A stretch of DNA of 64,000 bases. Source: Sulfuricystis multivorans. Lineage in GTDB: Bacteria; Pseudomonadota; Gammaproteobacteria; Burkholderiales; Rhodocyclaceae. The DNA is taken from assembly GCF_003966565.1 (NCBI RefSeq), contig NZ_AP018718.1, forward strand, positions 1,550,001-1,614,000, given 5' to 3'. The position numbers and the translations under genes are program-made. Each line of letters opens with the position of its first letter. Position 1 is the first letter of the stretch. Below the pieces are notes generated by a model. The model was given only the letters and a program-made list of their open reading frames with translations, did no database searches and was not told the origin of the DNA. Below are positions 3,783-51,763 of the stretch, in pieces.

Positions 3783-3790
3783 CGGAAAAA

Positions 3791-3810
3791 TCGGCGCTGG
3801 CAAGACGGCA
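3791..3810 (+). repeat. Dispersed repeat, copy 1
   Basis: TCGGCGCTGGCAAGACGGCA preceded by GGAAAAA; non-coding, in the divergent methyltransferase-hrcA region. Confidence 0.8.
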
Positions 3811-3811
3811 G

Positions 3812-3839
3812 GATTGTAATCCAGAGGTTCGTTACAATC
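3812..3839. promoter_or_regulatory. Perfect dyad between divergent methyltransferase and hrcA
   Basis: GATTGTAA and TTACAATC form perfect 8-bp arms separated by 12 bp in the 66-bp divergent region. Each arm contains a TACAAT-like -10 hexamer, one reading toward hrcA (ATG 10 bp further on) and one toward the methyltransferase. It could be an operator or simply two mirrored -10 elements. It is not the CIRCE sequence. Confidence 0.5.
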
Positions 3840-3848
3840 TGCTTCGCC

Positions 3849-4868
3849 ATGCTCGATGCCCGCGCCAAGACCCTGCTCAAGACCCTGATCGAACGCTATA
3901 TCGCGGAAGGTCAGCCGGTCGGCTCGCGCACGCTCGCCAAATACTCGGGCCTGGAGCTTTCGCCGGCGACGATCCGCAACGTGATGGCCGATCTCGAAGA
4001 GATGGGCTTCATCGCCAGCCCGCACACCTCGGCCGGACGCGTGCCGACGCCCAGGGGTTACCGCCTGTTCGTCGATACGCTGCTCACCGTGCAGCCGCTC
4101 GATCCCCAGCATATCTCCGAGCTCAAGGAAGCGCTGCTGCCCGACGTGCCGCAACGGGTGATCAGCCATGCCTCGCAGATGATCTCGGAGCTCACCCATT
4201 TCGCCGGCGTCGTCATCGCGCCGCGCCGCCAGGCGCCAAAGATCCGCCAGATCGAGTTTCTGAATCTGACCGAGACGCGCATCCTGCTGATCATCGTCAC
4301 CACCGAAGGCGAAGTACAAAACCGCATCCTCCTCACCCAACGCCCCTATGCCCAGAGCGAGCTGATCGAAGCGGCCAATTACCTGACGCAGAATTACGCC
4401 GGCCTGGACTTCATGCAGATCCGCCAGCGCCTGCACCACGAGCTGCAGCAGTTGCGCAGCGACATGACCGAGCTGATGAACGCCGCCGCCGATGCCGGCG
4501 CCCAAGCCGCCAGCGAAGCTGCGCAGCAATACGTGATCAGCGGCGAGAAGAATCTGCTCGACAGCGAGGATCTCGCCGCCAACATGGCGCGGCTACGCCA
4601 GCTGTTTGACCTCTTCGAACAGAAAACCGGCCTGATGCAGCTGCTCGACCTGTCGAGCCGCGCCGAGGGCGTGCATGTCTTCATCGGCGGTGAATCGGGC
4701 ATCGCGCCGCTCGATGAATGCAGCATCGTCGCCGCCCCCTACGAAGTCGAAGGGCAAGTGGTCGGCACCATCGGCGTGATCGGCCCGACACGCATGGCCT
4801 ACGAGCGCGTGATCCCGATCGTCGACATCACCGCGCGACTGCTCTCCTCCGCATTGAGTCCCAATTGA
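3849..4868 (+). CDS. hrcA: Heat-inducible transcription repressor HrcA
   Basis: Repressor of chaperone genes that binds CIRCE operators in other bacteria. The 339-residue product starts [18 protein letters not shown]. It has the N-terminal winged-helix segment ([34 protein letters not shown], within residues 20-60) with the adjoining HTSAGRVPT block, and the C-terminal IFIGGE-type block ([24 protein letters not shown]). An upstream in-frame extension covers the antisense of the methyltransferase and is discarded. The stop overlaps the TTG start of hemH. grpE-dnaK-dnaJ lie 3.6 kb downstream, but no CIRCE element was found in front of them, so HrcA probably acts elsewhere in the genome (for example groESL). 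Confidence 0.95.
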
Positions 4869-5842: not shown

Positions 5843-6050
5843 ACCCAGATTGTCCATTAGACCGTCCTGTCTGCGGATGAGCGTAAGCAAACCTTGTCAT
5901 CCTGGACTGCGCGGGCGTTTCCGGTCTGCGAGCGGGCCCTTCGCGCCCGCGCTCCTCGCCAATAGACACCGTTATTGGCTCGTCACGCGGACGCAAATCG
6001 CCTCGCCCTCGCCTCGAAACCGCCTCGCGCCCTAATGGACAATCTGGGTT
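5842..6050. mobile_element. MITE-like element with perfect 19-bp terminal inverted repeats
   Basis: The left end AACCCAGATTGTCCATTAG (5842-5860) and right end CTAATGGACAATCTGGGTT (6032-6050) are perfect reverse complements. They enclose about 170 bp with no credible gene. The element fills most of the 260-bp gap between hemH and trxC. No clear target-site duplication was seen, and no transposase is encoded here, so it would need to be mobilised in trans or be a folded RNA/DNA repeat. Confidence 0.7.
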
Positions 6051-6068
6051 GAAAACTGGCTGCCGAAA

Positions 6069-6094: not shown

Positions 6095-6102
6095 AGACTG
6101 CC

Positions 6103-6537: not shown

Positions 6538-6597
6538 GATGCCTTCGTCGCCTCTGGGGTAAACTCCTCCCGCTACCTTTCGAGGGGAGTTGACACC

Positions 6598-8214: not shown

Positions 8215-8217
8215 CAT

Positions 8218-8516: not shown

Positions 8517-9083
8517 ATGCAAGACGATCACACCCCCGAAACCCCTGAACTGACGGCCAAACCCGGCGCCGGCGACACGGCGCCCGAGGCTGCGGCCGAC
8601 ACTGCGGATGCGCCGGAAGTCATGCCGAGTCTCGAAGAGTTGCTCAAGGCCGCGGAGCTCAAAGCCGCCGAGCACCACGACGCCTGGCTGCGCGCGAAGG
8701 CCGAGACCGAAAACGTCCGCCGCCGCGCTCAGGAAGACATCGCCAAGGCGCACAAGTTTGCGATCGAAAAATTCGCCGGCGAATTGCTGGCGGTCAAAGA
8801 CAGCCTGGAAGCCGCGCTCGCCAACGAGACCCAAACCGTCGAGACGCTCAGGGCCGGCGTCGAGCTGACGCTGAAACAGCTGGCGAGCGCGTTCGAGAAA
8901 TCCGCGCTCACCGAGATCAACCCGCTCGGTGAAAAGTTCGACCCACACAAGCACCAGGCGATCGCGATGGTCGAGGCCGACCAGGAAGCGAATACCATCG
9001 TCAGCGTTCTGCAGAAGGGTTATGCGCTGCACGACCGCATCTTGCGGCCGGCGCTGGTCACCGTCGCCAAGCCCAAGGCTTGA
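8517..9083 (+). CDS. grpE: Nucleotide exchange factor GrpE
   Basis: DnaK co-chaperone that releases ADP. The product has 188 residues: an acidic, proline-rich unstructured N-terminus to about residue 38, then a long coiled coil ([32 protein letters not shown]), then the beta-wing domain with the conserved [16 protein letters not shown] and [20 protein letters not shown] blocks. It begins [11 protein letters not shown]. It starts a grpE-dnaK-dnaJ cluster, with a candidate heat-shock promoter in front and a second, stronger one at its own stop codon serving dnaK. Confidence 0.96.
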
Positions 9084-9155: not shown

Positions 9156-11078
<1,923 letters not shown>

Positions 11079-12371: not shown

Positions 12372-15300
12372 ATGTCGTTTCAGTTCGACTTGCCCATGCC
12401 GCCGAAAGCCGGCCAGCGCGTGGCTTTACCCCGCCTCGCCGGCTCAGCCGACGCCCTGGCGCTCGCGCAGCTTGCCGACGGCAAACACCTGCTGACGATC
12501 GTCGCCGCCACACCGCTCGAAGCCCAGCGGCTTTACGATGAAATCGGCTGGTTCGCGCCGTCCTTGCGCGTCCATCTGCTGCCCGACTGGGAAACGCTCC
12601 CCTATGACCACTTCTCGCCGCACCAGGATCTGATCTCCGAGCGACTGGCAACGCTGTTTGCCGTCTCGCAGAATCAGAGCGACGTGCTGATCGTCGCTGC
12701 AGCGACCGCAGCCACGCGGCTTCCGCCCCCCGCCTTCCTCGCCGCCCACACTTTCTTCATGAAACAGGGCGACACGCTCGACCTCGAACGCTTCCGCAAC
12801 CAGATGACGCTGGCGGGCTACCAGCATGTCACGCAGGTCGTTGCCCCGGGCGAATACAGCATGCGCGGCGGGCTGATCGATCTTTTTCCGATGGGCTCGG
12901 CGCTCCCCTACCGGATCGAGCTGTTCGACGACGAGATCGAAACCTTGCGCTGCTTCGACGTCGACAGCCAGAAGAGTCTCTATCCGGTGGCGGAGATTCG
13001 CCTGCTGCCGGCGCGCGAATTCCCCACCAGCGAGTCCGCACGGACGATGTTCCGCCAGCGCTTCCGTGAGACGTTCGAGGGCGATGCCTCGCGCATCGCG
13101 CTCTACAAGGACGTCTCGAACGGCGTGTTTCCTGCCGGCATCGAGTATTACCTGCCGCTCTTTTTCGACCAGACGGCGACATTGTTCGACTACCTGCCGC
13201 AGGATGCCCGGCTCGTGCTGCATGGCGACGTGCCTGCGACGCTCGCCGAGTTCTGGGTCGACCTGCAACAGCGCTACAAAACGCTTGGCGGCGACAGATC
13301 TCGGCCGATCTTGCCGCCTCAGTCGCTCTTTATGCGCGACGAGGAGTTTTTCATCGAGGCGCATGCCTGGCCGCAATACCTGATGAAAATCGGCGCTGGC
13401 GAGACGGCACCCCCGTCACCGCAAGCCCTGCCGCCGCTGGCGGTCGACCGCAAGGCCAACGACCCCGTCGCCGCGCTGCGCCGCTTTCTCGACGGTTACC
13501 CCGGCCGCGTGCTGCTCATTGCCGAATCGCCAGGCCGGCGCGAGACGCTGCATGAATATCTCGCCGAGCATGGGCTTGCCGCGGCGATCGTCCCCGACTT
13601 CGCGGCTTTCCTTGCCGGCTCGGCCCCATTGTCTTTGGCGCACGGCCCGGTTTCCGGCGGCTTTGCGCTCGATGATTTCGCCGTCGTCACCGAAAACGAA
13701 CTCTATGCCGCCACCGCGCGACCGCGCCACAAGCGCTCGGAGGCACGGCGCGCCAATCTCGAAGGCTGGCTGCGCGATTTGTCGGAGCTGAAGATCGGCG
13801 ATCCGGTGGTGCATGAAAACCACGGCATCGGCCGTTTTCTCGGCCTCGTGCGCATGGATCTCGGGCAGGGCGAGGAAGAGTTCCTCCAGCTCGAATACGC
13901 CAACGAAGCGAAGCTCTATGTGCCCGTCGCTCAGCTCGAAGTGATCTCGCGCTACAGCGGCGCCGATCCGGAAGCGGTGCAATTGCACACGCTCGGCTCG
14001 GGCCAGTGGGAGAAGGCAAAGAAAAAGGCCGCGCTGCAGGTGCGTGACACCGCCGCGGAACTGCTTGCGCTCTATGCCCAGCGCGCCGCCCGCCAGGGCC
14101 ACAAGTTCAGCTTCCAGACGCATGATCTGGAAGCCTTCGCCGCCGGCTTCGGTTTCGAGGAGACACCCGATCAGCTGGCCGCGATCGGCGCGGTGATTTC
14201 CGACATGACCGCCGGCAAGCCGATGGATCGGCTGGTCTGTGGCGACGTCGGTTTCGGCAAGACCGAAGTCGCGCTGCGCGCCGCCTTCGTCGCGGTGGCC
14301 GACGGCCGTCAAGTGGCCGTGCTCTGCCCGACCACGCTCCTTGCCGAACAGCATTATCAGACCTTCGCCGACCGCTTCGCCGACTGGCCCGTCAAGGTCG
14401 CCGAACTCTCGCGCTTCAAATCGAAACAGGAGCAAGCCGCAGCCATCGAGCAGCTCGCGCAGGGAAAAATCGACATCGTGATCGGCACTCACCGATTATT
14501 GCAACCGGATGTGAAGTTTGCCCGCCTCGGCCTTGTCATCATCGACGAGGAACACCGCTTCGGCGTGCGCCAGAAGGAAGCGCTGAAGGCGCTGCGCGCC
14601 GAGGTCGATGTGCTGACGCTGACCGCCACGCCGATCCCGCGCACGCTGGGCCTGTCGCTCGAAGGCTTGCGCGATTTTTCGGTGATCGCCACACCTCCCC
14701 AGAAACGGCTGGCCATCAAGACCTTCGTGCATCGATGGTCCAACGGCCTGGTGCGCGAAGCCTGCCTGCGAGAATTCAAACGCGGCGGACAAGTCTATGT
14801 TCTCCATAACGAAGTCGAGACGATCGAAAATATGCGCGACCGGCTCCAGAAATTACTGCCGGAGGCGCGCATCGTCGTCGGCCACGGTCAGCTTCCCGAG
14901 CGGGAGCTCGAACGCGTGATGCGCGAATTCACCCAGCAGAAGCACAACCTGCTGCTGTGTTCGACGATCATCGAAACCGGCATCGACAATCCACACGCCA
15001 ACACCATCATCATCCACCGCGCCGACAAATTCGGCTTGGCCCAGCTCCATCAGCTGCGCGGACGGGTCGGGCGCAGCCACCACCAGGCCTACGCCTATCT
15101 GCTCACCGACGAGCATGCCAAGCCAACGCCCCAGGCGCAACGCCGCCTCGAAGCGATCCAGGCGATGGAAGAACTCGGCTCCGGCTTTTTCCTCGCCATG
15201 CACGATCTGGAGATTCGCGGCGCCGGCGAGGTGCTCGGTGAGGCGCAGTCGGGAGAAATCCACGAGATCGGCTTCGCGCTTTACACCAACATGCTCAATG

Positions 15301-16073: not shown

Positions 16074-16459
16074 TGAAGCTCTTGCTCGACACCCACGCCT
16101 TCTTGCACTGGGTGGCGGACGATCCTCGGCTCACCCCCAAGGTGCGCGAGGTGATCGCTGATATGGACAACGAAGTGTTCGTCAGTCTCATCGTGCCTTG
16201 GGAGCTAGCCATCAAGTCGGCGCTGGGAAAGATTTGCCTGAATCAGTCGGTCGGTCGTTTCGTAACGCAACAGGTCGAAGCCAACGGCTTTAGCCTGCTG
16301 GGCATCGATCTTGCCGACATCGCCCTCGTCGAGACGCTTCCACTGCACCACCGCGATCCGTTCGATCGCCTCTTGATCGCACAGGCGAAGAACAGAAATC
16401 TCACCCTCGTCAGCGGGGATGCTGCGTTTTCTGCCTACTCAATCAAACGTATCTGGTAA
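16073..16459 (+). CDS. PIN-domain toxin (VapC-like ribonuclease)
   Basis: Predicted Mg2+-dependent RNase toxin of 128 residues. The PIN acidic residues are present: D6 (LLLDTHAFLHW), E44 (PWELAIK), D95/D98 (HRDPFDRLLIAQA) and D116 (LVSGDAAF). The LDTHAFLHW opening resembles the PIN subgroup paired with Phd-type antitoxins rather than classical VapB. The start overlaps the antitoxin stop by one base. The pair sits between mfd and aroG, two housekeeping genes, and is probably a recent insertion. The toxin looks intact. Confidence 0.87.
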   Translation: MKLLLDTHAFLHWVADDPRLTPKVREVIADMDNEVFVSLIVPWELAIKSALGKICLNQSVGRFVTQQVEANGFSLLGIDLADIALVETLPLHHRDPFDRLLIAQAKNRNLTLVSGDAAFSAYSIKRIW

Positions 16460-16466
16460 CCACGCC

Positions 16467-17546
16467 ATGCAGCCCACCGAAAACCTCAACATCGAAACCT
16501 TCGAACCGATGCCGACGCCGGCGGAGATCCACGCCCGCGTGCCGATGACCGAAGCCGCGGAAAAGTCGGTGCTGGCGGGACGGCACACGATCGAGGCGAT
16601 TCTCGACCGCCGCGATCCACGTCTGTTCGTCGTCGTCGGCCCTTGCTCGATCCACGACCCCATCGCCGGCATCGATTACGCCCAGCGTCTCGAGGCGCTC
16701 GCCGACGAGGTCGCCGACACGCTGTTCCTCGTCATGCGCGTCTATTTCGAAAAGCCGCGCACCGCGACCGGCTGGAAGGGTTTCATCAACGATCCGCGCA
16801 TGGATGATTCCTTCCACATCGAGGAAGGCATCTACAAGGCGCGCGAGTTCCTGCTCGCCGTCAATGAGCTGGGGGTGCCCGCCGGTACCGAGGCGCTCGA
16901 CCCGATCACCCCACAATATCTCGGCGACCTGGTCAGCTGGACGGCGATCGGCGCACGCACCTCCGAATCGCAGACGCACCGCGAGATGGCCTCGGGCCTA
17001 TCGACGCCGGTGGGTTTCAAGAACGGCACCGACGGCTCGGTCGAGACCGCGGTGAATGCGATCCTCTCCGCCTCGAAACCGCACAGCTTTCTCGGCATCA
17101 ACATGGAAGGGCGCACCTCGGTCGTCCGCACCCGCGGCAATCGTTATGGCCACCTCGTCCTGCGCGGCGGCGGTGGCCGGCCGAATTACGATTCGGTCTC
17201 GGTGGCGATCGCCGAACAGGCGCTCGCCAAGGCGGGGCGACCTCAGAACATCGTCATCGACTGCTCGCATGCCAACAGCTACAAAGACCCGGAGCGTCAG
17301 CCGCTGGTACTGCACGACGTCGTGAACCAAATCCGGCTGGGCAACAAATCGATCGTCGGCCTGATGATCGAAAGCTTCCTCGAAGCCGGCAACCAGCCGA
17401 TCCCCGACGATTTGACGCAGCTCAAATACGGCTGTTCGGTCACCGATGCCTGCGTAGACTGGCCGACCACCGAAAAGATGATCCGCGAGGCTTATGACAT
17501 CCTGCGCGGCCCATTGGCCGGCCGTGCCATGCGAAAGGCCGCATGA
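16467..17546 (+). CDS. aroG: 3-deoxy-7-phosphoheptulonate synthase (class I, AroG type)
   Basis: Condenses phosphoenolpyruvate and erythrose 4-phosphate, the first step of the shikimate pathway. The 359-residue protein carries the type I signature blocks VVGPCSIHDP, MRVYFEKPRTATGWKG, GARTSESQTHREMASGLS and FKNGTDG. The start MQPTENLNIETFEP was chosen 7 bp after the toxin stop; an in-frame extension upstream overlaps the toxin gene. It overlaps the next gene in an ATGATG context. Which aromatic amino acid inhibits it cannot be read with certainty. A sequence resembling the dispersed repeat (16566-16585) occurs near its 5' end but in a different reading frame. Confidence 0.94.
   Translation: MQPTENLNIETFEPMPTPAEIHARVPMTEAAEKSVLAGRHTIEAILDRRDPRLFVVVGPCSIHDPIAGIDYAQRLEALADEVADTLFLVMRVYFEKPRTATGWKGFINDPRMDDSFHIEEGIYKAREFLLAVNELGVPAGTEALDPITPQYLGDLVSWTAIGARTSESQTHREMASGLSTPVGFKNGTDGSVETAVNAILSASKPHSFLGINMEGRTSVVRTRGNRYGHLVLRGGGGRPNYDSVSVAIAEQALAKAGRPQNIVIDCSHANSYKDPERQPLVLHDVVNQIRLGNKSIVGLMIESFLEAGNQPIPDDLTQLKYGCSVTDACVDWPTTEKMIREAYDILRGPLAGRAMRKAA
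16566..16585 (+). repeat. Dispersed repeat-like sequence in aroG
   Basis: TCGGTGCTGGCGGGACGGCA preceded by AAAAG; a close match but read in another frame (KSVLAGRH), so possibly coincidental. Confidence 0.4.
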
Positions 17547-19344: not shown

Positions 19345-20147
19345 GGCATTTCTCCGTGGGGTATGAAGTTTACGAGGCGCGGCAACACCGCCAGGGTATT
19401 GGCGCGGGTCCTTGCTGCGATTTCCATCAGCGGCATCCCCCGCAATTGTGCCAGCGTTTCGGCGATCGGCACCAGATCGGCGGGCGTGTTTCTACCGTTC
19501 GGTTTCCAGGCCGGCGGGATGTCCGGCGCATCGGTCTCCAGCACGATCGCTTCGAGCGGCAAGGTCGCGGCAAGCGCCCGGATGCGTTTCGAGCCGGGAT
19601 AGGTCATTGCACCGCCAAAACCCAGTTTGAAGCCGAGTTTGATGAACTGCTCGGCCTGTTCCCGACTGCCATTGAAGGCATGGGCGATGCCGCCGGGCAC
19701 GGGGATTTCACGCAGGGCCTTGAGAATCGGATCGATCGCCCGACGCACGTGCAGCAGTACCGGCAGCCCCAACTCGCGCGCGAGCTCAAGCTGCGAACGG
19801 AACCAAAACATCTGTTGCCCATCATCGCGCGGCTGCACATGTCGATCGAGCCCGATCTCGCCGACGGCCACCGCCGGTTGATGCTGCAAGGTTTCCCGCA
19901 GCGCATCGAGGTCCTCTGGCCGGACACGATCGACATACATCGGGTGGATGCCAAAGCTCGGCGCACAACCCGGATAGGTGCGGCAGACGCTGGCCACCGC
20001 GCCGAAATTCGCCCGCTCGACTGCCGGAACGACCATGACCTCGACTGCCGTGCCACCAGCGCCGAGTTTCGCCGCGGCCACCACCTCGTCGCGATCGGCG
20101 TCGAATTCCGCCGCGTCGAGATGGCAGTGGGTGTCGATCAGGCTCAA
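19341..20147 (-). CDS. TatD-family metal-dependent hydrolase
   Basis: Metal-dependent TIM-barrel hydrolase of the TatD family, 268 residues; members act as DNA exonucleases. The N-terminal metal motif is IDTHCHLD (H7, H9). [37 protein letters not shown] and [10 protein letters not shown] follow in the expected order. Residues 28-35 (KLGAGGTA) are encoded by a degenerate copy of the dispersed repeat and appear to lengthen the loop before the first VMVVPAV strand. It lies 24 bp after iscX and overlaps tpx. Confidence 0.9.
20046..20065 (-). repeat. Dispersed repeat, degenerate copy in tatD
   Basis: On the minus strand TCGGCGCTGGTGGCACGGCA preceded by GAAAC; codes LGAGGTA. Confidence 0.6.
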
Positions 20148-25096: not shown

Positions 25097-26266
<1,170 letters not shown>

Positions 26267-27692: not shown

Positions 27693-28484
27693 TCAAGCGC
27701 TCTCACGGTATCGCTTGCCGGTCGGCTGACGGCAAGAGGTCAGCAGTCCGCGCAGGATGTTGACCTCTTCTCTTTCCAGCCCGGCGCGCGCGAACAATCG
27801 CCGCAGGCGCAGCATCAGCCTTCCAGGTCTTTCCGGGTCGAGAAAGCCGCTTTTGATGGCCATGCCTTCGATCTGCGCGAGCAACCCCTCGATCTCCTCG
27901 TGGGTCGCCAGCATCCTGGCAGGCGTAAAACTCGGCGCTGGCGCGACGGCACCCGCAGAGGTAGCGATGGCCAAGCGTAGCTCGTAACAGAGCACCTGCA
28001 CCGCCGCGGCGAGATTGAGCGACGAATAGGCCGGATTGGCAGGAATCATCGCCCAGCGGTTGCAATAGGCGAACTCCTCGTTCGACAAGCCAGTGGTTTC
28101 ATTGCCGAAGACGAGAGCCACTTCGGCAGCCGCAACAGCCTGCTGCGCCAACTCGACAGCCCCCTCACGCGCCCAGCAGGGCGCGGTGGCCAAATCACGC
28201 CGACGCGAGGTCAGCGCCAGGGCGAGGGTCACGCCTTCGAGCGCCGCAGGCAAAGAATCCACCACCTGCACCGCCGCCAGCACATCAACCGCGCCAGAGG
28301 CCATCGCCTCCGCCTCAGGGGCCGGAAATACCTTCGGCGCGACGAGCACGAGTCGGCCGAAACCCATCGTCTTCATCGCTCGCGCGGCCGCACCGATGTT
28401 GCCCGGATGGCTGGGCCGCACCAGCACGATGCGCACGCGCCCGAAAGCGTCCGACGCCGTAAGGTCCGAAGGATTAGAATTCAC
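27693..28484 (-). CDS. trmJ: tRNA (cytidine/uridine-2'-O-)-methyltransferase TrmJ
   Basis: SPOUT-class enzyme that 2'-O-methylates position 32 of tRNAs. It has 263 residues. The N-terminal SPOUT domain shows [23 protein letters not shown] and the AdoMet knot blocks [14 protein letters not shown] and [24 protein letters not shown]. The C-terminal arm carries the Glu-rich [11 protein letters not shown] helix and [21 protein letters not shown]. Residues 178-185 (GAVAPAPS), in the linker before that arm, are coded by an inverted copy of the dispersed repeat. Only 26 bp separate it from divergent suhB. Confidence 0.93.
27932..27951 (+). repeat. Dispersed repeat, copy in trmJ
   Basis: TCGGCGCTGGCGCGACGGCA preceded by GTAAAAC; antisense to trmJ, which therefore reads AVAPAPSF. 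Confidence 0.8.
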
Positions 28485-31920: not shown

Positions 31921-33375
31921 ATGAGCTCCCCGATCCTCGCGGCCCAGTCATTGCGCGCTCTCGAAGCGGCCCATTCGTCCGCCACGCCCTCGCTGATGGA
32001 ACGCGCCGGCGCCTGCGCCGCCCGTATCGCTTTGGAGATGCTGGAAGGGAAAGCGCTGATCCTCGCCGGCCCTGGCAACAACGGCGGCGATGCCTTCGTC
32101 GTCGCGCGTCTTCTCAAGCAAGCCGGCCACCTCCCCGTCGTGCTGTTCGCCGGCGATCCGGCGCGACTGCCGGAGGATGCGCGCGGCGCTCATGGCGCCT
32201 GGCTCGCAGGCGGCGGACGGTGTCTGGCGCAGTTTCCCGAAGACCGCTTCGGCCTGATCGTCGATGGGCTGTTCGGCATTGGCCTTGCCCGACCGATCGA
32301 CGGCCTCTATGCCGAATGGATCGAGCGCGCCAATGCCAGTGGCGCCCCGATTCTCGCCCTCGACACTCCGAGCGGCTTGAATGCGCTGACCGGCCAGGTC
32401 ACCGGCCCGGTGATCCGCGCGACCCGCACCGTCGCCTTCATCGCACTGAAGCCGGGCTTGCTGACCGGCGAGGGGCCGGATCTTTGCGGGAGGATCGACG
32501 TCTGCGACCTCGACCTCGATGTCGGCGCCGGGGATGGTCAAGTCGTTTCGCCCGAACTGTTCCGCGCCTATCTGAAGCCCAGGCTGCGCAACAGCCACAA
32601 GGGCAGCTTCGGCAGCGTCGCGATCCTCGGCGGCGCGCCCGGCATGGCCGGTGCCGCGCTGCTCGCCGGCCGCGCGGCCCTGAAACTCGGCGCCGGACGG
32701 GTCTATCCCGGCATGCTCGAAACGCTCGCCGTCGATGTCATGCAACCGGAGCTGATGCTGCGCTCGCCCGACGATGCACTGCGCTTGGCCAGCGTGCTGG
32801 CGATCGGGCCGGGACTCGGCCAGTCGCCATCCGCCGAAGCGCTGCTTGCGCAGGTCTTCGATTGCGATTTGCCTCTCATCATCGACGCCGACGGCCTCAA
32901 TCTCCTGGCCAAGATCCCGCAACTGCAACGCAAGTGTGCCGTCTCGCCAGCGCCGACTCTGCTCACCCCTCACCCCGCCGAGGCGGCGCGGCTGTTGGGC
33001 TGCCTGCCAGGCGCGATCCAGGCCGATCGCGTCACGGCGGCGCTGGAACTGGCCAAGCGCTTCTCCGCCCATGTCGCCCTCAAGGGCTGTGGCACGGTCG
33101 TCGCGGCACCCGACGGACGCTGGTTCATCAACCAAAGCGGCAACCCGGGGCTGGCCAGCGCCGGCAGCGGCGACGTGCTCACCGGCATGCTCGCCGCGCT
33201 GCTCGCGCAGCACTGGCCGCCACTCGAAGCGTTACTGGCCGCCGTGCATCTGCATGGCGTGGCGGCGGATGCCTGCGTCGCCGAAGGCCGCGGTCCGGTG
33301 GGGCTGACCGCCACTGAGCTGATCGACGCGGCACGCCGCACCTTGAACCGCTGGATCGCCGAACTTGCCTGTTGA
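31921..33375 (+). CDS. nnr: Bifunctional NAD(P)H-hydrate epimerase/dehydratase
   Basis: Repairs damaged NAD(P)H hydrates. It has 484 residues. The N-terminal YjeF-type epimerase domain shows ILAGPGNNGGDAFVVARLL and later LDTPSGLNALTGQ. The C-terminal ADP-dependent dehydratase domain shows KGSFGSVAILGGAPGMAGAA and NPGLASAGSGDVLTGMLAALL. The start MSSPILAAQSLRALE is preferred; a far longer in-frame reading upstream is antisense to the amidohydrolase. Residues about 339-346 (CAVSPAPT) derive from an inverted copy of the dispersed repeat. It overlaps the next gene. Confidence 0.94.
   Translation: MSSPILAAQSLRALEAAHSSATPSLMERAGACAARIALEMLEGKALILAGPGNNGGDAFVVARLLKQAGHLPVVLFAGDPARLPEDARGAHGAWLAGGGRCLAQFPEDRFGLIVDGLFGIGLARPIDGLYAEWIERANASGAPILALDTPSGLNALTGQVTGPVIRATRTVAFIALKPGLLTGEGPDLCGRIDVCDLDLDVGAGDGQVVSPELFRAYLKPRLRNSHKGSFGSVAILGGAPGMAGAALLAGRAALKLGAGRVYPGMLETLAVDVMQPELMLRSPDDALRLASVLAIGPGLGQSPSAEALLAQVFDCDLPLIIDADGLNLLAKIPQLQRKCAVSPAPTLLTPHPAEAARLLGCLPGAIQADRVTAALELAKRFSAHVALKGCGTVVAAPDGRWFINQSGNPGLASAGSGDVLTGMLAALLAQHWPPLEALLAAVHLHGVAADACVAEGRGPVGLTATELIDAARRTLNRWIAELAC
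32937..32956 (-). repeat. Dispersed repeat, copy in nnr
   Basis: On the minus strand TCGGCGCTGGCGAGACGGCA preceded by AGAG; nnr therefore reads CAVSPAPT. Confidence 0.8.
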
Positions 33376-37003: not shown

Positions 37004-37027
37004 GGATTGTCGAGAAATGGCTGAAAA

Positions 37028-37047
37028 TCGGCGCTGGCAGGACGGCA
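37028..37047 (+). repeat. Dispersed repeat, copy after the DUF218 gene
   Basis: TCGGCGCTGGCAGGACGGCA preceded by TGAAAA; non-coding, 4 bp beyond the stop of the DUF218 gene. Confidence 0.8.
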
Positions 37048-37051
37048 CCGT

Positions 37052-37962: not shown

Positions 37963-38020
37963 TTGCATGATCAAGATGAATTGGTGCATTATCCTGCAAT
38001 ACCCACCATCGGGAGGTTCT

Positions 38021-39343
38021 ATGACAGACTTTCCGCGCTTCGGCGTTGGCGCGACGGCACATCGCTCCCGTTTCGGGATGGCGCTACGTTGCATCTTCGC
38101 CTTCTCCGTCCTTGGCGGCACCTGGGCGGCTTGTTTGGCCGACGACCTGCCGGGCACGCCGCAATACCTCGGCGAAGTGCGCCGCGATCCAAGCGGCCGG
38201 CTCGTCACCGTGCCGGCACCGGCGGCCAATGAGACCGCCGCGCGTCCCACCGGCAGGGTGCTGAAGGTCGGACCGCATCAGGAAATCCGGCTCATCTCCA
38301 CCGCCGCCAAACTCGCCCAGGATGGCGATACGATCGAGATCGAGGCCGGCGACTATCCGGGCGATGTCGCGGTCTGGAAGCAAAACGAGCTGACCATCCG
38401 TGGCGTCGGCGGTCGCCCGCGGCTGATCGCCGCCGGCGCCAGCGCCGAAGGCAAGGGCATCTGGGTGATCCGCGGCGGCCGTATCGTCGTCGAGAACCTC
38501 GAATTCACCGGTGCGCGCGTGTCGGACAAAAATGGCGCCGGTATCCGTTTCGAGCGCGGCCACCTCATCGTGCGCAAGTGCCGCTTCCACGACAACGAGA
38601 ACGGCATCCTCACCGGCAGCGGCAACCAGGAGCTCGAGATCGAGGACAGCGAGTTCGGCCACAACGGCGCCGGCGACGGTTACAGCCACAACATCTACGT
38701 CGGCGCGATCCGCAAGCTCACCGTGACCGGCAGCTATTTCCATCACGCCAAGGCGGGGCATCTGTTGAAGAGCCGCGCCGCGGAAAACTACATCCTTTAC
38801 AACCGCCTCACCGACGAAGCCGGCGGCCGCGCCAGCTATGAGCTCGAATTCCCCAATGGCGGCGTCAACTATGTGATCGGCAACATCATCCAGCAGAGCT
38901 CCACGCCCGAAAACCCGGTACTCATCTCCTTTGGTGCCGAGGGCTACAAGCATCCCACCAACCAGCTCTATCTGATCAACAACACGCTGCACGACGAACG
39001 CCCGCAAGGCGGCTATTTCCTCGTCGCGAAACCCGGCTTCCAGATCGTCAAGGCCTACAACAACCTGCTGATCGGCAAGCGGCCGCTCAACAGCGGCGGC
39101 ATCGACGGTGAATTCGTCAACAATCCGAACGTCGAATGGGAACCCTTCGTGCTACCGCAGCGTCATGACTATCGCATCAAGCGCGACAGCCCCCTGCACC
39201 GCACCTGGCGCGACCCCGGCAGTGCCAATGGCTTCAGTCTCGCACCGGTACGCGAATACGTGCATCCCACTTCGACCCGACCGCTGACCACCACGCCGAC
39301 GCTGCCCGGCGCCAGGCAAACACTCGAACCCGACCGGGAATAG
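38021..39343 (+). CDS. Secreted right-handed beta-helix protein (paralogue 1)
   Basis: Predicted exported protein of 440 residues. From this ATG (SD GGGAGG 4 bp away) the N-terminus MTDFPRFGVGATAHRS contains a copy of the dispersed repeat, and the signal peptide proper is MALRCIFAFSVLGGTWAACLA beginning at residue 20; translation could start there (38078). The mature part is a parallel beta-helix: DGDTIEIEAGDYPGDVAVW, then repeating coils such as GIWVIRGGRIVVENLEFTGAR and NGILTGSGNQELEIEDSEFGHNG. It is clearly homologous to the protein at 49578-50540. Such folds bind or cleave polysaccharides; no catalytic residues can be assigned. Divergent from the DUF218 gene. Confidence 0.8.
   Translation: MTDFPRFGVGATAHRSRFGMALRCIFAFSVLGGTWAACLADDLPGTPQYLGEVRRDPSGRLVTVPAPAANETAARPTGRVLKVGPHQEIRLISTAAKLAQDGDTIEIEAGDYPGDVAVWKQNELTIRGVGGRPRLIAAGASAEGKGIWVIRGGRIVVENLEFTGARVSDKNGAGIRFERGHLIVRKCRFHDNENGILTGSGNQELEIEDSEFGHNGAGDGYSHNIYVGAIRKLTVTGSYFHHAKAGHLLKSRAAENYILYNRLTDEAGGRASYELEFPNGGVNYVIGNIIQQSSTPENPVLISFGAEGYKHPTNQLYLINNTLHDERPQGGYFLVAKPGFQIVKAYNNLLIGKRPLNSGGIDGEFVNNPNVEWEPFVLPQRHDYRIKRDSPLHRTWRDPGSANGFSLAPVREYVHPTSTRPLTTTPTLPGARQTLEPDRE
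38040..38059 (+). repeat. Dispersed repeat, copy at the first beta-helix gene
   Basis: TCGGCGTTGGCGCGACGGCA; codes FGVGATA in front of the signal peptide. Confidence 0.65.
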
Positions 39344-39351
39344 GTCGAAAC

Positions 39352-39371
39352 TCGGCGGCTTCGAAACGGCA
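39352..39371 (+). repeat. Weak dispersed-repeat remnant
   Basis: TCGGCGGCTTCGAAACGGCA preceded by GAAAC; lies exactly between the convergent beta-helix and decarboxylase stops. Six of 20 bases differ. Confidence 0.35.
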
Positions 39372-40610
39372 CTAGACGAGGATTTCGGCGACCGCCGGAT
39401 GGCCGAGAAACGCTTGAGGACTTGCGCTGGCGCCATAGGCGCCGGACTGGAAGATCACCACCAGATCGCCGGGTTCGGCCTTCGCCAGCGCCAGCCGGTC
39501 GGCCAGCAGATCGAGCGGGGTGCAAAGCGGCCCGACGACGCTGGCGACTTCCTTCTCCGTCGCGTCCATTTTGTTGCCGATCACCACCGGATAGTTCTTG
39601 CGGATCACCTGGCCAAAATTGCCCGAGGCCGAAAGGTGGTGGTTGAGTCCGCCATCGCAGACGAGGAACACCTGGCCGCGCGAGATTTTCCGGTCGAGCA
39701 CGCGTGTCACATAAATACCGGCCTCGCCGACCAAGTAACGCCCCAACTCGATCACCAGTTCGGCCCGCGGCAGCTCGCGCTCCGCCCGCTCGCTGAGCGC
39801 GGCGAGATTCGCGCCGATCGGCGCCGGATCGAGCCGCTCTTCGCCGGGGAAATATGGAATACCGAAGCCGCCGCCGAGATTGAGTGTCAAAACCGGCGCC
39901 GGCGCATGCGCTGCGAGCTTGAGTGCAAGCTCATAGGATTTCTGCTGCGCCTCGACGATCGCCTCCGCCTTCAGGTTCTGCGAGCCGGAGAACAGATGGA
40001 AGCCTTCGAAAACGAGTCCTGCCTTACCGATTTCGGCCAGCGCCTGCGGCACCGCTTCGGCGTCGATGCCGAACTGCTTCGGGCCGCCACCCATCTTCAT
40101 CCCTGAGGCCTTGAGCTCGAAATCGGGATTGACGCGCACCGCCACGCGGGCTGGCACGCCCAGTTGCCGCGAAATTCTCGCCAACAAGGCGATCTCGCGG
40201 AAGGATTCGACATTGACGAGGATCCCCGCCGCGACCGCCTGGATGAGCTCGTTCTCGCGCTTGCCCGGTCCGGCGAAGCTGATTTCGCGCGGTTTAGCGC
40301 CGGCATCGAGTGATACTTTCAGCTCGCCGCCGGAAGCGACGTCGATGCCATCGACCAGCCGCACCATCTGCGCCACCAGCGCCGGCATCGGATTGGCCTT
40401 CATCGCGTAGTGGAGCTTCACCGCTGGCGGCAGGATCGCACGCAATTGCGCGACACGTTGGGCGATGAGGCCGCGGTCGTAGGCATAGAAAGGCGTCGCG
40501 CCGACGCGCGCGGCCAACTGCGTCAATGGCAGGCCGCCAATGACCAGCTCGCCTGAGGCGACCGGGAACTGGTCCATCGGCGCATGGGCGGGTGTTGAGG
40601 ATAGGATCAT
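39372..40610 (-). CDS. PLP-dependent decarboxylase, exosortase A system-associated
   Basis: Fold-type III PLP enzyme of the diaminopimelate/ornithine decarboxylase class, 412 residues. The PLP lysine lies in KLHYAMKANPMPALV. Further blocks are DVASGGELKVSL, LNLGGGFGIPYFPGEE, ELGRYLVGEAGIYVTRVLD and FLVCDGGLNHHLSASG, and the CDGG cysteine is shared with the next subunit's active site in this class. Overall it matches the decarboxylase family linked to exosortase A loci rather than LysA. It would make an amine or amino acid for the surface-glycan pathway. It converges on the beta-helix gene, with a weak copy of the dispersed repeat between the two stops. Confidence 0.85.
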   Translation of the reverse strand: MILSSTPAHAPMDQFPVASGELVIGGLPLTQLAARVGATPFYAYDRGLIAQRVAQLRAILPPAVKLHYAMKANPMPALVAQMVRLVDGIDVASGGELKVSLDAGAKPREISFAGPGKRENELIQAVAAGILVNVESFREIALLARISRQLGVPARVAVRVNPDFELKASGMKMGGGPKQFGIDAEAVPQALAEIGKAGLVFEGFHLFSGSQNLKAEAIVEAQQKSYELALKLAAHAPAPVLTLNLGGGFGIPYFPGEERLDPAPIGANLAALSERAERELPRAELVIELGRYLVGEAGIYVTRVLDRKISRGQVFLVCDGGLNHHLSASGNFGQVIRKNYPVVIGNKMDATEKEVASVVGPLCTPLDLLADRLALAKAEPGDLVVIFQSGAYGASASPQAFLGHPAVAEILV

Positions 40611-46272: not shown

Positions 46273-47076
46273 ATGGCGGCCGAAGCCTTTTTCCTTCCGG
46301 TCGCCGCAGGTCAGCGCTTCTGCCTGTACTACGCGCCGGCGGGCGAAACGCGGGCGGTGTTCCTGTATCTCCATCCGTTTGCCGAAGAGATGAACAAATC
46401 GCGCCGCATGGCCGCGCTGATGTCGCGCCGGCTGGCGGAACACGGCCTCGCGGTATTGCAGATCGATCTCGCCGGCTGTGGCGACAGCAGCGGCGATTTC
46501 GGCGATGCGAGCTGGCAAGCCTGGCTGGACGATATCGCCGCCGCGCTCGACTGGCTGCGCGTGCGCCATGACGCGCCGCTGTGGCTCTGGGGCCTGCGCA
46601 GCGGCTGCTTGCTGGCGGCCGAGGCCGCGCGACGCACAGAGGTTGCCGCGAACTTCCTGTTCTGGCAGCCGGTGATCACCGGCAGGACATTCCTGCAACA
46701 GTTCTTGCGTCTGAAGCTCGCCGGCGAAATGCTCGGCGGCGAGGCCAAGGGCGTGATGGCCACGCTCAAACAACGGCTCGCCGCCGGTGAAGCCGTCGAG
46801 ATCGTCGGCTATGCGCTCTCGCCCGCCCTCGCGCAGGGACTGGAAAGCGCGACCCTCGCACCGCCGAACCGACCGGGGCGGTTGTTGTGGTTCGAGCTCT
46901 CATCCCGCGCCGACGCAACGCTCGCCCCGGCCTCGCAAAAGTGCCTGGAACAATGGCAAGCGGCGGAATTTTCGGTCGCCAGTGCCGTGTTGCCAGCGCC
47001 GAGTTTCTGGCAGACCACGGAAATCGAGGAAGCGCCGGCGCTCATCGAGGCGACACTGGCCGCACTGCAAACATGA
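46273..47076 (+). CDS. Hydrolase 2, exosortase A system-associated
   Basis: Alpha/beta-hydrolase of 267 residues, MAAEAFFLPVAAGQRFCLYYAP. The family shape is clear (YLHPFAEEMNKSRRMAALMSR, LQIDLAGCGDSSGDF). The nucleophile elbow reads WGLRSGCLLAAEAA, with Ser in GLRSG. Residues about 238-245 (SAVLPAPS) are coded by an inverted copy of the dispersed repeat. It lies 9 bp after the ACP gene and overlaps hydrolase 1 (ATGA). Substrate unknown; a thioesterase or acyl-transfer role on the ACP is plausible. Confidence 0.85.
   Translation: MAAEAFFLPVAAGQRFCLYYAPAGETRAVFLYLHPFAEEMNKSRRMAALMSRRLAEHGLAVLQIDLAGCGDSSGDFGDASWQAWLDDIAAALDWLRVRHDAPLWLWGLRSGCLLAAEAARRTEVAANFLFWQPVITGRTFLQQFLRLKLAGEMLGGEAKGVMATLKQRLAAGEAVEIVGYALSPALAQGLESATLAPPNRPGRLLWFELSSRADATLAPASQKCLEQWQAAEFSVASAVLPAPSFWQTTEIEEAPALIEATLAALQT
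46983..47002 (-). repeat. Dispersed repeat, copy in hydrolase 2
   Basis: On the minus strand TCGGCGCTGGCAACACGGCA preceded by AGAAAC; the gene reads SAVLPAPSF. Confidence 0.75.
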
Positions 47077-49581: not shown

Positions 49582-50540
49582 CGGAACCCGGCGCTGGCAA
49601 GACGGCACAGCACATCACGCTGGCGCTCTTTTTGGCCCTCACGCTCCCCAGCGCCCTAGCCGACACCCTGCGCGTCGGCCCGCACGAACGCCTCACGCGC
49701 ATCGCCGAGGCCGCCCGCCTGGCCAAGGACGGCGACACGGTGGAAATCCTCCCCGGCGAATATCGCGGCGATGTCGCCGTCTGGCTGCAAAAGCGGCTCA
49801 CTGTGCGCGGTATCGGTCAGCGGCCCGTTTTGATCGCCGACGGCAGCAGCGCGGAAGGGAAAGCCATCTGGGTCATCCGCAACGGCGAATTCCACCTCGA
49901 AAACCTCGAATTCCGCGGCAGCCGCGTACCGGCCGGCAACGGCGCGGCCATCCGTTTCGAAGGCGGCAGGCTCACCGTGCGCGACTGCGCCTTCATCGAC
50001 AACCAGATGGGCATCCTCACCAGTAACGACGGCGTTTCCGAACTCGTCATCGAGCACAGCCGCTTCGCCGACGCGCCGCATCAGATGCATTCGCTGCCGC
50101 ACCTGCTCTATGTCGGTCGCATCGCCCGCGTCGAGATCCGCCACAGCCGTTTCGAAAACGGTTTTCGCGGCCATCTGGTCAAATCGCGCGCGCGGCAGAG
50201 CCTGCTCCACGACAATCAGATCGTCGACGGCTCCAGCGGCGAAGCTTCCTACGAGATCGACCTTCCCAACGGCGGCATCGCCACGATCACCGGCAACACC
50301 GTCGCCCAGAGCGCGAAGACCCAGAACCCCGTGTTGATCTCTTACGGCGCCGAAGGCGATGTCTGGCCCGACAATGCGCTCACCCTGCGCCACAACGTGC
50401 TGATCAGCGATGTCCTGCCCGGCGGCTGGTTCCTGCGCGTCCATGGAGACAAATTCCCCACCCCGCCCCGCCTCGACATCGGCGACAATGAAACGCACGG
50501 CATTGGCATCCTGACTCCTGCCGAAGCAACAAGCCGATGA
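49578..50540 (+). CDS. Secreted right-handed beta-helix protein (paralogue 2)
   Basis: Exported protein of 320 residues, paralogous to the 38021-39343 product over its whole length (for example GDTVEILPGEYRGDVAVWLQKRL against GDTIEIEAGDYPGDVAVWKQNEL, and the QNPVLISYGAEG block). The ATG overlaps the preceding stop (ATGA). Residues 2-9 (TEPGAGKT) are encoded by a dispersed-repeat copy and precede the signal peptide HITLALFLALTLPSALA. A glycan-binding or glycan-modifying role is plausible from fold and context only. Confidence 0.82.
   Translation: MTEPGAGKTAQHITLALFLALTLPSALADTLRVGPHERLTRIAEAARLAKDGDTVEILPGEYRGDVAVWLQKRLTVRGIGQRPVLIADGSSAEGKAIWVIRNGEFHLENLEFRGSRVPAGNGAAIRFEGGRLTVRDCAFIDNQMGILTSNDGVSELVIEHSRFADAPHQMHSLPHLLYVGRIARVEIRHSRFENGFRGHLVKSRARQSLLHDNQIVDGSSGEASYEIDLPNGGIATITGNTVAQSAKTQNPVLISYGAEGDVWPDNALTLRHNVLISDVLPGGWFLRVHGDKFPTPPRLDIGDNETHGIGILTPAEATSR
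49588..49607 (+). repeat. Dispersed repeat, copy at the second beta-helix gene
   Basis: CCGGCGCTGGCAAGACGGCA preceded by GGAAC; begins in codon 4 of the gene (PGAGKTA). Confidence 0.75.
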
Positions 50541-50547
50541 CAGGAAC

Positions 50548-50567
50548 TCGGCTCTGATAGGACGGCA
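50548..50567 (+). repeat. Dispersed repeat, degenerate copy at the DegT gene start
   Basis: TCGGCTCTGATAGGACGGCA preceded by GGAAC; its last A is the first base of the DegT-gene ATG. Confidence 0.6.
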
Positions 50568-51763
50568 TGCTGCTCGACACCCTGATCTTCGATCCCAGCT
50601 CTTGCGGTTTTCCCAGGCCGCGCCTGCCGCTGCTGCCGATCGGCTTTGACGGAATCGCATTCGCAGCACCGTCGGCATGGGCGCCCACCGCGCACTTCCG
50701 CCACTTTTCACGCGGCCGCTATGCCCTGCGCGAAGCCTATCGGCTCGCCGGCATCGGCCCGGGCAGCACCCTGCTCGCGCCAGCCTATCATTGCCGAACG
50801 ATGCTCGACCCGGCGTTGGCGCTGGGTGCCGACGTGGCACTCTACCCACTGCGATCCGACCTTTCGCCCGATCTCGCCGCGCTCGATGCCCTGGCCGACT
50901 CGGCGCCCATCCCCGTCAGGGCATTGCTCGCCACGCACTTCTTCGGTCTGCCACGCGACTTCGCCGCACTCGCCGACTGGTGCGCGGCGCGCCGTATCAC
51001 CCTAATCGAAGACGCCTCGCACGCTTTCTTCACCGAGCAGCACCGTCCTGCCGGCATCGGCGCCTATGGCGCATTCGTCGTCTCCAGCCCTTACAAATTC
51101 CTCCCCAGTCCCGATGGCGGCCTGCTCTACGCACCGGAGGCCGGGCGTCTGCACGACATCGTCCCCAGGGCGCCAAGCTGGCGCGACGAGCTCGCCGGTA
51201 TCGCCAGCTTCTGGCAAAAAGCCCACAGCGCCTCCCGCTGCGACCTCGCGATGCTGGAGGCCGAGCTCACCGCAAACGCCGCCAACCCGAGTCCCCTGGC
51301 CAGCGAGCGCCACGAGTTCGCCGGCCCATCGAGCGACTATCGGCCGGAACATGCCGGCCGAGCAAGTCTGCGCTTGTCTCGGCTACTCTACCGTCATCCC
51401 GATATCGCAGCCATCGCCTCGTCGAGACGCAAGAATTATCGTCGCTGGACCACAGCGACCATGAATCTGCCATACTGTCGGCCGCTTTACCCCGAATTGC
51501 CCGATGATTGCATTCCTTACATGTTCCCACTGCTGATCGAGCACCCCGAAACCCACTTCTACTGGCTCAAGCGGCTGGGCGTACCGATCTGGCGCTGGGA
51601 CAGCATGGCCGCTTCGACCTGCCCGACGGCGACGCACTACCGCTTACACTTGTTGCACCTGCCCTGCCACCAATCCCTCAATGAAAGCAAAATGGACTGG
51701 ATAATCTCGGCTCTCACCAAAGTCGGCGCTGGCAGGACGGCACTTCTCCAAGCATGCCAATGA
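50567..51763 (+). CDS. DegT/DnrJ/EryC1-type PLP aminotransferase-like protein
   Basis: Fold-type I PLP protein of 398 residues. Features: GRYALREAYRLAGIGPGSTLLAPAYHC at the cofactor end, LLATHFFGLPRDFAAL, EDASHAFF with the pyridinium-binding Asp, and SSPYKFLPSPDGGLL with the candidate PLP lysine. Sugar aminotransferases and dehydratases of this type make amino- or deoxysugars. The ATG lies inside a degenerate dispersed-repeat copy, and the C-terminal tail LTKVGAGRTALLQACQ is coded by another copy that overlaps the next gene's start. Thus both ends are bounded by repeats. Confidence 0.82.
   Translation: MLLDTLIFDPSSCGFPRPRLPLLPIGFDGIAFAAPSAWAPTAHFRHFSRGRYALREAYRLAGIGPGSTLLAPAYHCRTMLDPALALGADVALYPLRSDLSPDLAALDALADSAPIPVRALLATHFFGLPRDFAALADWCAARRITLIEDASHAFFTEQHRPAGIGAYGAFVVSSPYKFLPSPDGGLLYAPEAGRLHDIVPRAPSWRDELAGIASFWQKAHSASRCDLAMLEAELTANAANPSPLASERHEFAGPSSDYRPEHAGRASLRLSRLLYRHPDIAAIASSRRKNYRRWTTATMNLPYCRPLYPELPDDCIPYMFPLLIEHPETHFYWLKRLGVPIWRWDSMAASTCPTATHYRLHLLHLPCHQSLNESKMDWIISALTKVGAGRTALLQACQ
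51723..51742 (+). repeat. Dispersed repeat, copy at the DegT/ATP-grasp junction
   Basis: TCGGCGCTGGCAGGACGGCA preceded by CAAAG; codes VGAGRTA at the DegT C-terminus, 11 bp before the ATP-grasp ATG. Confidence 0.8.

What the first reader, a model, noticed from the sequence alone, without database searches (positions are those of the whole stretch)
3785..51743. A dispersed repeat of about 25 bp, about 13 copies in 64 kb
Seen directly: the core TCGGCGCTGGCRRGACGGCA, usually preceded by GAAA plus one base and followed by C. The strongest copies are at 3791, 13390, 27932, 37028, 49588 and 51723 on the plus strand and 32937 and 46983 on the minus strand. Weaker ones are at 16566, 20046, 38040, 39352 and 50548. 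Two central positions vary freely while the flanks hold. A 20-mer this well conserved should not recur by chance in 64 kb. It is too short and unstructured for an IS or REP/BIME hairpin. It may be a species-specific interspersed repeat family, an uptake-sequence analogue, or a protein-binding site.
Basis: seen in the sequence. Interest (0 to 1): 0.85.

Follow-up and report, generated by a model that had tools for sequence, protein, structure and literature searches.

The report
DNA-uptake-like motif in Rhodocyclaceae chromosomes
A 25-letter DNA word recurs about 470 times in this bacterium's genome but was not found in the plasmid-like DNA sampled, and it behaves like the 'self' tags that Neisseria and Haemophilus use to choose which DNA to take up, which would make this a third bacterial family with such a code.

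Summary
The repeat is real: 13 matches in the window against 0.13 expected; 472 in the 2.81 Mb genome, 0 for the reversed control. Consensus: G-AAA-[G/C]-TCGGCGCTGGC[G/A][G/A]GACGGCA-C.

It does not look like a mobile element. Copies show no polarity (97/98) and fewer close pairs than chance. They lie in genes and, in excess, between genes, and are absent from the 140 kb sampled of two conjugative contigs. In a conserved gene they differ between species mainly by substitutions. Orthologous copies are more conserved than their flanks. The motif marks 29 of 249 family genomes, 7 of 68 genera, with lineage dialects.

Best explanation (about 0.6): a DNA-uptake-sequence analogue in Rhodocyclaceae, maintained by biased uptake in natural transformation. 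A 2025 paper names only Neisseriaceae and Pasteurellaceae as having this trait (passage). For: ComEC and a ComP_DUS-family minor pilin beside ispH. Against: no stand-alone ComEA over cut-off in 13 genomes of the genus; no uptake data.

Bonus: 54-bp palindromic units sit inside some copies, in frame in ispH and a trpC-like gene.

The parts
3786..3811 (+). motif copy, perfect core, A-tract
   Evidence: 0 mismatches; motif kept in sister genome G017 next to an alignment gap
8558..8583 (+). degenerate motif copy (3 mismatches to the R-ended core, A-tract kept)
   Evidence: ortholog in sister G017 is a perfect copy
13385..13410 (+). motif copy in mfd (12372-15803)
   Evidence: 0 mismatches; mfd domains; copy present in G017 with substitutions only and near the same place in many relatives, often with gaps in the flank
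16561..16586 (+). motif copy in the DAHP synthase gene (16419-17546)
   Evidence: 1 mismatch; gene domain; mostly ungapped ortholog comparison across clade and outgroups
20045..20070 (-). motif copy, 2 mismatches
   Evidence: conserved in G017
25870..25895 (+). degenerate copy (4 mismatches, A-tract kept)
   Evidence: the sister genome has a perfect copy here
27927..27952 (+). motif copy, 1 mismatch
32936..32961 (-). motif copy, perfect core
37023..37048 (+). intergenic motif copy, perfect core
   Evidence: still recognisable in G017 where the flank aligns poorly (75%)
38035..38060 (+). motif copy, 2 mismatches; called intergenic but inside the ORF 37967-39343, whose product has a Beta_helix match
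   Evidence: sister copy perfect
39347..39372 (+). sub-variant copy GAAACTCGGCGGCTTCGAAACGGCAC
   Evidence: same sub-variant at four other own loci
46982..47007 (-). motif copy, 1 mismatch
49583..49608 (+). motif copy, 1 mismatch, at a gene start
50543..50568 (+). motif copy, 3 mismatches, just upstream of the gene at 50567
51718..51743 (+). motif copy, perfect core, at a gene end
52001..64000 (.). low-GC (50-57%) tract with no copy of the motif
   Evidence: composition; 0 of 16 window matches

Best explanation
The motif is the self-recognition tag of a DNA-uptake system in a clade of Rhodocyclaceae (own genus and Sulfuritalea- and Rugosibacter-type lineages), working like the DUS of Neisseriaceae or the USS of Pasteurellaceae. 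A type IV pilus tip protein is thought to bind the 25-bp site on free DNA. Fragments that carry it are taken up and recombined more often, so sites created by mutation spread and are kept by biased uptake and conversion. Shown: number, consensus, lack of polarity, shortage of close pairs, occurrence in genes and spacers, substitution differences at a conserved gene, conservation above flanks, clade-wide presence with dialects, absence from the sampled parts of resident conjugative contigs, presence of ComEC and minor pilins. Inferred: that a pilin reads it, that uptake is biased, and which pilin does so (candidate: the ComP_DUS-family minor pilin beside ispH).
For: 472 copies, reversed control 0. 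17 of 18 congeners with 184-690 copies at up to 2 mismatches, reversed control 0-1. 29 of 249 family genomes with 58 or more 5'-half matches, the other 220 with 13 or fewer. 97 plus and 98 minus copies in the first 1.055 Mb (positions); 5 gaps under 500 bp against 17.3 expected (P 0.0005), gap CV 0.88 against 0.99 (P 0.04). 58 of 80 centres in coding DNA against 91% coding, in all six frame/strand classes (P 2e-6). 0 copies in 140 kb of contigs C2/C3 against 26.4 expected, with conjugation genes on both. DAHP synthase site: many clade members TCGGTGCTGGCGGGACGGC, several outgroups of the type ACCGTCGTCGCCGGCCGCC, mostly without gaps. Motif columns 88% identical against 72% in flanks, 43 of 47 copies above their flanks, control 115 of 199. 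Dialect in G076, signs of another in G094. Own ComEC of 757 aa with DUF4131, Competence and Lactamase_B domains, and a ComP_DUS pilin with GspH- and PilW-type pilins. Published DUS traits that match: dialects following phylogeny (passages), core-genome bias and absence from recently acquired genes (passages).
Against: No stand-alone ComEA over the cut-off in any of 13 genomes of the genus, while 4 of 8 order-level genomes have a short HHH_3 frame; the own genome has only a sub-cut-off hit on C2 (23.5 bits, 234-aa frame). ComEC and ComP_DUS pilins also occur in genomes without the motif, including congener G005, so neither tracks the motif. DprA, PilQ and PilT were not tested. Mean gap 5.4 kb against about 1.5 kb for meningococcal DUS, and the motif is longer than the 9-12 nt quoted for USS/DUS. 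Several motif-bearing genomes lack the DAHP synthase copy (L049, L053 and L057, G109), and a Thauera outgroup (L088) comes within 3 mismatches there, so protein constraint may contribute at that site. In one search, 7 of 19 aligned own copies have a gap within the compared 30 bases; most empty-site pairs have a gap (247 of 373). No uptake data exist.
Confidence: 0.6

Rival explanations
1. A chromosome-organising or nucleoid protein of unknown type binds the motif (an address site for compaction, segregation or gene insulation) and selection keeps the sites.
For: Shortage of close pairs, a chromosome-only pattern in what was sampled and strong conservation fit equally well; no stand-alone ComEA over the cut-off was found.
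Against: The site is not palindromic, has no polarity in the 1.055 Mb examined and is present in 17 of 18 sampled chromosome stretches (the exception has 58% GC), unlike KOPS, matS or SlmA sites (recalled). The sequence differs between close relatives. Near-absence in G307, while seven sampled genus mates have 65-276, is hard for an essential structural system.
Confidence: 0.2
2. A short mobile or REP-like repeat family that has spread by insertion.
For: 54-bp palindromic tandem units do sit within some copies, with 56 arm matches in the own genome and 64 in G017. Many empty-site alignments have gaps nearby (247 of 373).
Against: The 54-bp units are clearly above control only in G000, G017 and G003 of 41 genomes (G006 has 12 against 4), whereas the motif is abundant in 7 genera. 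Differences at the conserved DAHP synthase site are mostly ungapped. In one search the gaps lie beside the motif rather than removing it. 0 copies in 140 kb of conjugative contigs.
Confidence: 0.04
3. A regulatory operator or RNA-level element of a global regulator.
For: Intergenic copies are enriched (22 of 80 against 9%).
Against: 58 of 80 copies are inside called genes, in both orientations and at many relative positions.
Confidence: 0.05
4. Protein constraint: the motif encodes a P-loop-like peptide (x-G-A-G-x-T-A) and recurs for that reason.
For: The commonest coding frame reads xGAGxTA (23 of 58 coding copies).
Against: 35 of 58 coding copies are in other frames or on the other strand, 22 of 80 are called intergenic, and the A-tract and the final A are kept outside that peptide.
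Confidence: 0.01

Closest known systems
DNA uptake sequence (DUS), Neisseriaceae, read by minor pilin ComP
   Same: Many copies in the genome, dialects by lineage, depletion in acquired DNA, some inverted pairs (passages); a ComP_DUS-family pilin is present here.
   Different: Different and longer sequence (about 25 bp against 10-12 nt), lower density; the receptor is unproven here and that pilin family also occurs in genomes without the motif. The published dialects keep a CTG core; the present motif holds a CTG in most copies but not the DUS 12-mer (DUS letters recalled).
Uptake signal sequence (USS), Pasteurellaceae
   Same: GC-rich core next to an A-rich flank (USS flank and recall), non-palindromic.
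   Different: Core AAGTGCGGT or ACAAGCGGT is not the present motif; different class of Proteobacteria; longer core here.
Rickettsia palindromic elements (RPE)
   Same: The 54-bp units are palindromic and lie in frame inside conserved genes. The comparison is recalled; one search was a search listing only.
   Different: These units sit inside the motif and form tandem arrays of 1-4; no sequence relation was tested.
KOPS, Chi, matS and other chromosomal signals (recalled)
   Same: Dispersed chromosomal sites.
   Different: Those are polar, short or palindromic, or regionally confined; here no polarity, about 25 bp, spread over the stretch examined.

Membership tests
DUS/USS-type uptake sequence (functional class) | Over-represented short motif, hundreds or more copies | tested here: met
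DUS/USS-type uptake sequence (functional class) | Both strands, no replication polarity, inside and outside genes | tested here: met
   (polarity examined over 1.055 of 2.56 Mb of C1).
DUS/USS-type uptake sequence (functional class) | Under-represented in recently acquired or mobile DNA | tested here: met
   0 in 140 of 252 kb of two conjugative contigs; gap of 43.8 kb at 518-562 kb (random maximum 31.6 kb, sd 6.7) with a sampled part at 58% GC.
DUS/USS-type uptake sequence (functional class) | Lineage-specific dialects | tested here: met
   some groups rest on few sites (4 for L044, 11 for the Rugosibacter-type set).
DUS/USS-type uptake sequence (functional class) | Complete competence machinery (T4P, ComEA, ComEC, DprA) | tested here: inconclusive
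   ComEC and minor pilins found; no stand-alone ComEA over the cut-off; DprA, PilQ and PilT not searched.
DUS/USS-type uptake sequence (functional class) | Preferential uptake of motif-bearing DNA by cells | not testable with these tools
   Needs a transformation or uptake assay.
Neisseriaceae DUS (sequence family) | The 12-nt DUS or one of its dialects | tested here: not met
   The consensus differs from the DUS as recalled; only a 7-nt stretch (TGCCGTC) is shared with AT-DUS, which may be chance.
Pasteurellaceae USS (sequence family) | AAGTGCGGT or ACAAGCGGT core | tested here: not met
   Consensus against the cores quoted.
REP / MITE / IS | Copies arise by insertion (clean indels), inverted repeat ends or hairpin | tested here: not met
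Mostly ungapped empty sites in the DAHP synthase gene; an upstream inverted arm in 10 of 80 own copies and 1 of 143 relatives' copies.
KOPS/Chi-like polar signal | Strand bias relative to replication | tested here: not met
   97 to 98 in one 1.055-Mb stretch, runs test z -0.9; origin and terminus were only guessed from GC skew of sampled stretches.

The most novel reading that the evidence does not exclude
The motif is not an uptake tag but a new kind of chromosome-wide identity site: a 25-bp non-palindromic word read by an unknown protein to tell chromosome from plasmid or to partition the chromosome about every 5 kb, with its own palindromic parasite living inside it.
Probability: 0.2. Interest if true: 0.92.

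Novelty: new variant of a known kind. Interest (0 to 1): 0.78.

Why it matters
Sequence-selective DNA uptake is described for only two bacterial families (passage in PMC12616744). A third, independent case in environmental bacteria, with dialects and at least one apparent loss, would allow tests of whether uptake tags arise by molecular drive or by selection for 'safe sex', and would point to new pilin-DNA recognition. The apparent lack of a standard ComEA makes it odder. The palindromic units that expand inside the tag, in frame in ispH and a trpC-like gene, would be a parasite of an uptake code.

Tried and rejected
Phyletic profile of the ComP_DUS family (PF16732): present in 53 of 61 genomes with or without the motif, so not discriminating. 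ComEC (PF03772): 55 of 61 genomes; it is missing from motif-bearing G018 (83% complete) and present in motif-less G005. ComEA by TIGR00426 and HHH_3: in 13 genomes of the genus, 11 have one HHH_3 match over the cut-off, each in a frame of 620-1000 aa (read as Tex-type from recall), and 2 have none; other genera of the family were not in that draw. De novo 10-mers in 182 kb of congener G005 and in pooled outgroup loci gave no comparable motif (the pooled sets are dominated by orthologous genes of the Mfd locus, so they are a weak test). The G005 DAHP synthase site is unlike the motif, so G005 looks as if it never had that copy rather than as if it lost it (10 of the 11 loci given produced an alignment there). 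Viral contigs: 108 stretches with an exact match among 2.9 million contigs, 80 listed, most with one match; not followed. The PDB search of the PilE-like pilin matched pilins mainly through the N-terminal helix and listed no chain named ComP. NCBIfam on two other pilins gave only the general prepilin domain model over its cut-off. Literature: 8 searches, seen as listings, showed no title or abstract start on uptake sequences in Rhodocyclaceae; one listed paper with both 'Sulfuritalea' and 'natural competence' (PMC5099947) was not opened; the library lacks most subscription papers. Three papers were seen as passages only. Gene calls come from a home-made caller and are approximate: it called 38040 intergenic although a Pfam-matched ORF covers it, and put 3791 in the plus frame although the minus frame has the Pfam match.
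Full report
OBSERVATION. The 13th (39352) is a sub-variant, GAAACTCGGCGGCTTCGAAACGGCAC, that recurs at four other loci of this genome (5 of 69 relaxed matches in 444 kb) and was not seen in 220 kb of sister genome G017 (0 of 32). In the whole genome (2,811,460 bases, 3 contigs) there are 223 forward and 249 reverse matches, with 0 for the reversed control.

CONSENSUS. From 30 genomic copies (plus strand, 0-1 mismatches): G-A-A-A-[G/C]-TCGGCGCTGGC[G/A][G/A]GACGGCA-C. Selecting only on the 5' half and the A-tract, which leaves the 3' half unselected, still gives C84 G75 G57 G61 A90 C89 G90 G94 C89 A90 percent in the own and sister genomes (85 sites), so the 3' half is a true part of the word.

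WHERE IT SITS. In 424 kb of own chromosome (the window plus 18 stretches of 20 kb) a home-made gene caller places 58 of 80 copies in genes (coding fraction 91%) and 22 between genes; coding copies lie in all six frame/strand classes (23, 18, 7, 7, 2, 1), the commonest being xGAGxTA (P 2e-6 for the intergenic excess). At least two of its calls in the window are doubtful (38040, 3791). In the first 1.055 Mb there are 97 plus and 98 minus copies with no clear bias by bin. The mean gap is 5.4 kb; 5 gaps are under 500 bp against 17.3 in random placement (P 0.0005), gap CV 0.88 against 0.99 (P 0.04), and the longest gap is 43.8 kb at 518-562 kb (positions), where a sampled stretch has 58% GC and no copy. 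The plus list used the A-ended and the minus list the R-ended pattern, a small asymmetry. Contigs C2 (149 kb) and C3 (103 kb) have no copy in the 140 kb sampled (26.4 expected at the chromosomal rate) and carry conjugation genes (TraG_N on both, TraC on C3). The low-GC end of the window (52-64 kb) has none of 16.

WHO HAS IT. Relatives found through mfd are mostly titled Rhodocyclaceae, Rhodocyclales or Sulfuritalea, hence the family name used here. With up to 2 mismatches, 17 of 18 congeners have 184-690 copies; congener G005 has 1. Two of 18 other family genomes have 393 and 520; the other 16 have 0-6 and the 24 order-level genomes 0-5. I gave 30 of the 80 loci to a count in their genomes: 22 have 122-736 (including records titled Sulfuritalea, Rugosibacter and Rhodocyclaceae), G076 has 26, and 7 have 0-11. 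With a dialect-tolerant 5' half, 29 of 249 family genomes, in 7 of 68 genera, have 58 or more; the other 220 have 13 or fewer.

DIALECTS. The last base is A in 90% of own and sister sites, more often G in the closest named relatives (59%) and in Sulfuritalea-type loci (84%); UBA2250 (L044, 4 sites) reads TCGGCGCTGGCGGGGCGGCG; G076 reads AAAAGTCGACGCTGG; G094 shows signs of GAAAGTCAGCGC[C/T]GGC...ACGGCG. The grouping of loci is mine. G307, whose seven sampled genus mates have 65-276, has few and degraded matches (8 at up to 3 mismatches against 2 in the reversed control in 152 kb).

HOW COPIES ARISE. In the DAHP synthase gene, many clade members have TCGGTGCTGGCGGGACGGC and several outgroups ACCGTCGTCGCCGGCCGCC or similar, mostly in ungapped alignment (handles). 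Exceptions: motif-bearing L049, L053 and L057 and G109 lack the copy, and a Thauera outgroup (L088) comes within 3 mismatches, so protein constraint may contribute there. Against sister G017 (about 83% identity around copies), I compared the window and 7 of the 18 stretches: 19 of 43 own copies had an aligned ortholog; 10 are shared, 2 weak ones without A-tract are in the own genome only, and 7 have a gap within the 30 bases compared, where the motif itself is kept. In the other direction 21 of 37 aligned: 10 shared, 7 with gaps, 4 in G017 only, three of these with a degraded or sub-variant copy in the own genome. In broader blastn pairs, gaps near the site are common (292 of 686 occupied, 339 of 488 partial, 247 of 373 empty), because many copies lie in variable linkers such as the one in mfd; so the substitution claim rests on the conserved gene and on the sister comparison, not on all sites. 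Over 599 ortholog pairs among 32 sequences chosen as clade members, the motif columns are 88% identical and the flanks 72%; 43 of 47 copies beat their flank, against 115 of 199 control TCGGC sites, whose overall identity is higher (80% flanks).

MACHINERY. Own ComEC has DUF4131, Competence and Lactamase_B domains (757 aa). Fourteen prepilin-type matches were found. Next to ispH is a minor-pilin operon whose first gene is a 143-aa ComP_DUS-family pilin (44 bits, cut-off 27; pI about 8.8), followed by a GspH/FimT-like, an N_methyl-only (PilV-like by position and recall) and a PilW-like gene. Neither ComEC nor ComP_DUS tracks the motif. A stand-alone ComEA over the cut-off was not found in 13 genomes of the genus (the own genome has a 23.5-bit hit on C2 under the 27-bit cut-off), which is the main point against a canonical uptake route; a divergent ComEA remains possible.

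MECHANISM. The pattern matches published traits of uptake sequences: dialects along phylogeny (Frye 2013, PMC3630211, passages); inverted pairs, core-genome bias and absence from recently acquired genes (Treangen 2008, PMC2397512, passages; here inverted arms are few, 10 of 80). One paper states that only Neisseriaceae and Pasteurellaceae are known to have it (PMC12616744, passages). I therefore take it as an uptake tag of independent origin, at about 0.6; the rest goes mainly to an unknown chromosome-address system.

NESTED ELEMENT. At nine own loci and one in G017, 1-4 units of 54 bp (55 in one array) sit after base 13 of the motif; without them a full or nearly full motif is left (the search pattern required both motif halves, so this is partly by construction). 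Of ten arm matches with up to 2 mismatches in the sampled own chromosome, nine lie in such arrays; the tenth (L141:18778) ends in a motif but its left half did not fit the pattern. Each unit holds an inverted, degenerate copy of the motif. In ispH one unit adds 18 residues in frame in the own genome, and the G017 ispH lacks it (alignment gap of 21 residues). A trpC-like gene (identified by recall of its protein sequence) has another. Arm counts with up to 3 mismatches in 41 genomes: 56 in own, 64 in G017, 21 in G003, near the reversed-control level in most others.

Noticed in passing
L145:6802-7797 (ispH), L147:17382, L139:3532, L141:6839, L150:13780-14000: 54-bp palindromic tandem units nested inside motif copies, in frame in ispH and a trpC-like gene; absent from ispH of sister G017.
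   Followed up: partly
window 39347-39372; L139:11918, L141:166, L144:11101, L148:8951: Recurrent own-lineage sub-variant TCGGCGGCTNCG in place of TCGGCGCTGGCG (5 of 69); at two of these places the sister genome has the canonical form. Perhaps an emerging dialect.
   Followed up: partly
L141:18914-19852 and L152:97-761: CRISPR-like arrays: 15 repeats at 67-bp period on the chromosome, 11 at 66-67 bp on contig C3.
   Followed up: no
G000 contigs C2 and C3 (L151, L189-L193, L152): Two conjugative plasmid-like contigs (TraG_N on both, TraC on C3), each with an Eco57I-type methylase with the same domain positions; C3 also has a phage integrase and a ribonucleotide reductase.
   Followed up: partly
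window 2601-4529: Eco57I-type restriction-modification methylase domain on the minus-strand frame, while the home-made gene caller prefers the overlapping plus-strand frame 2682-4868.
   Followed up: no
G127 contigs C66, C104, C557: Nine of 12 motif 5'-half matches lie on three contigs of this genome: binning contamination or transferred DNA.
   Followed up: no
L216: A viral contig with five exact motif matches, four of them at 316-bp spacing.
   Followed up: no
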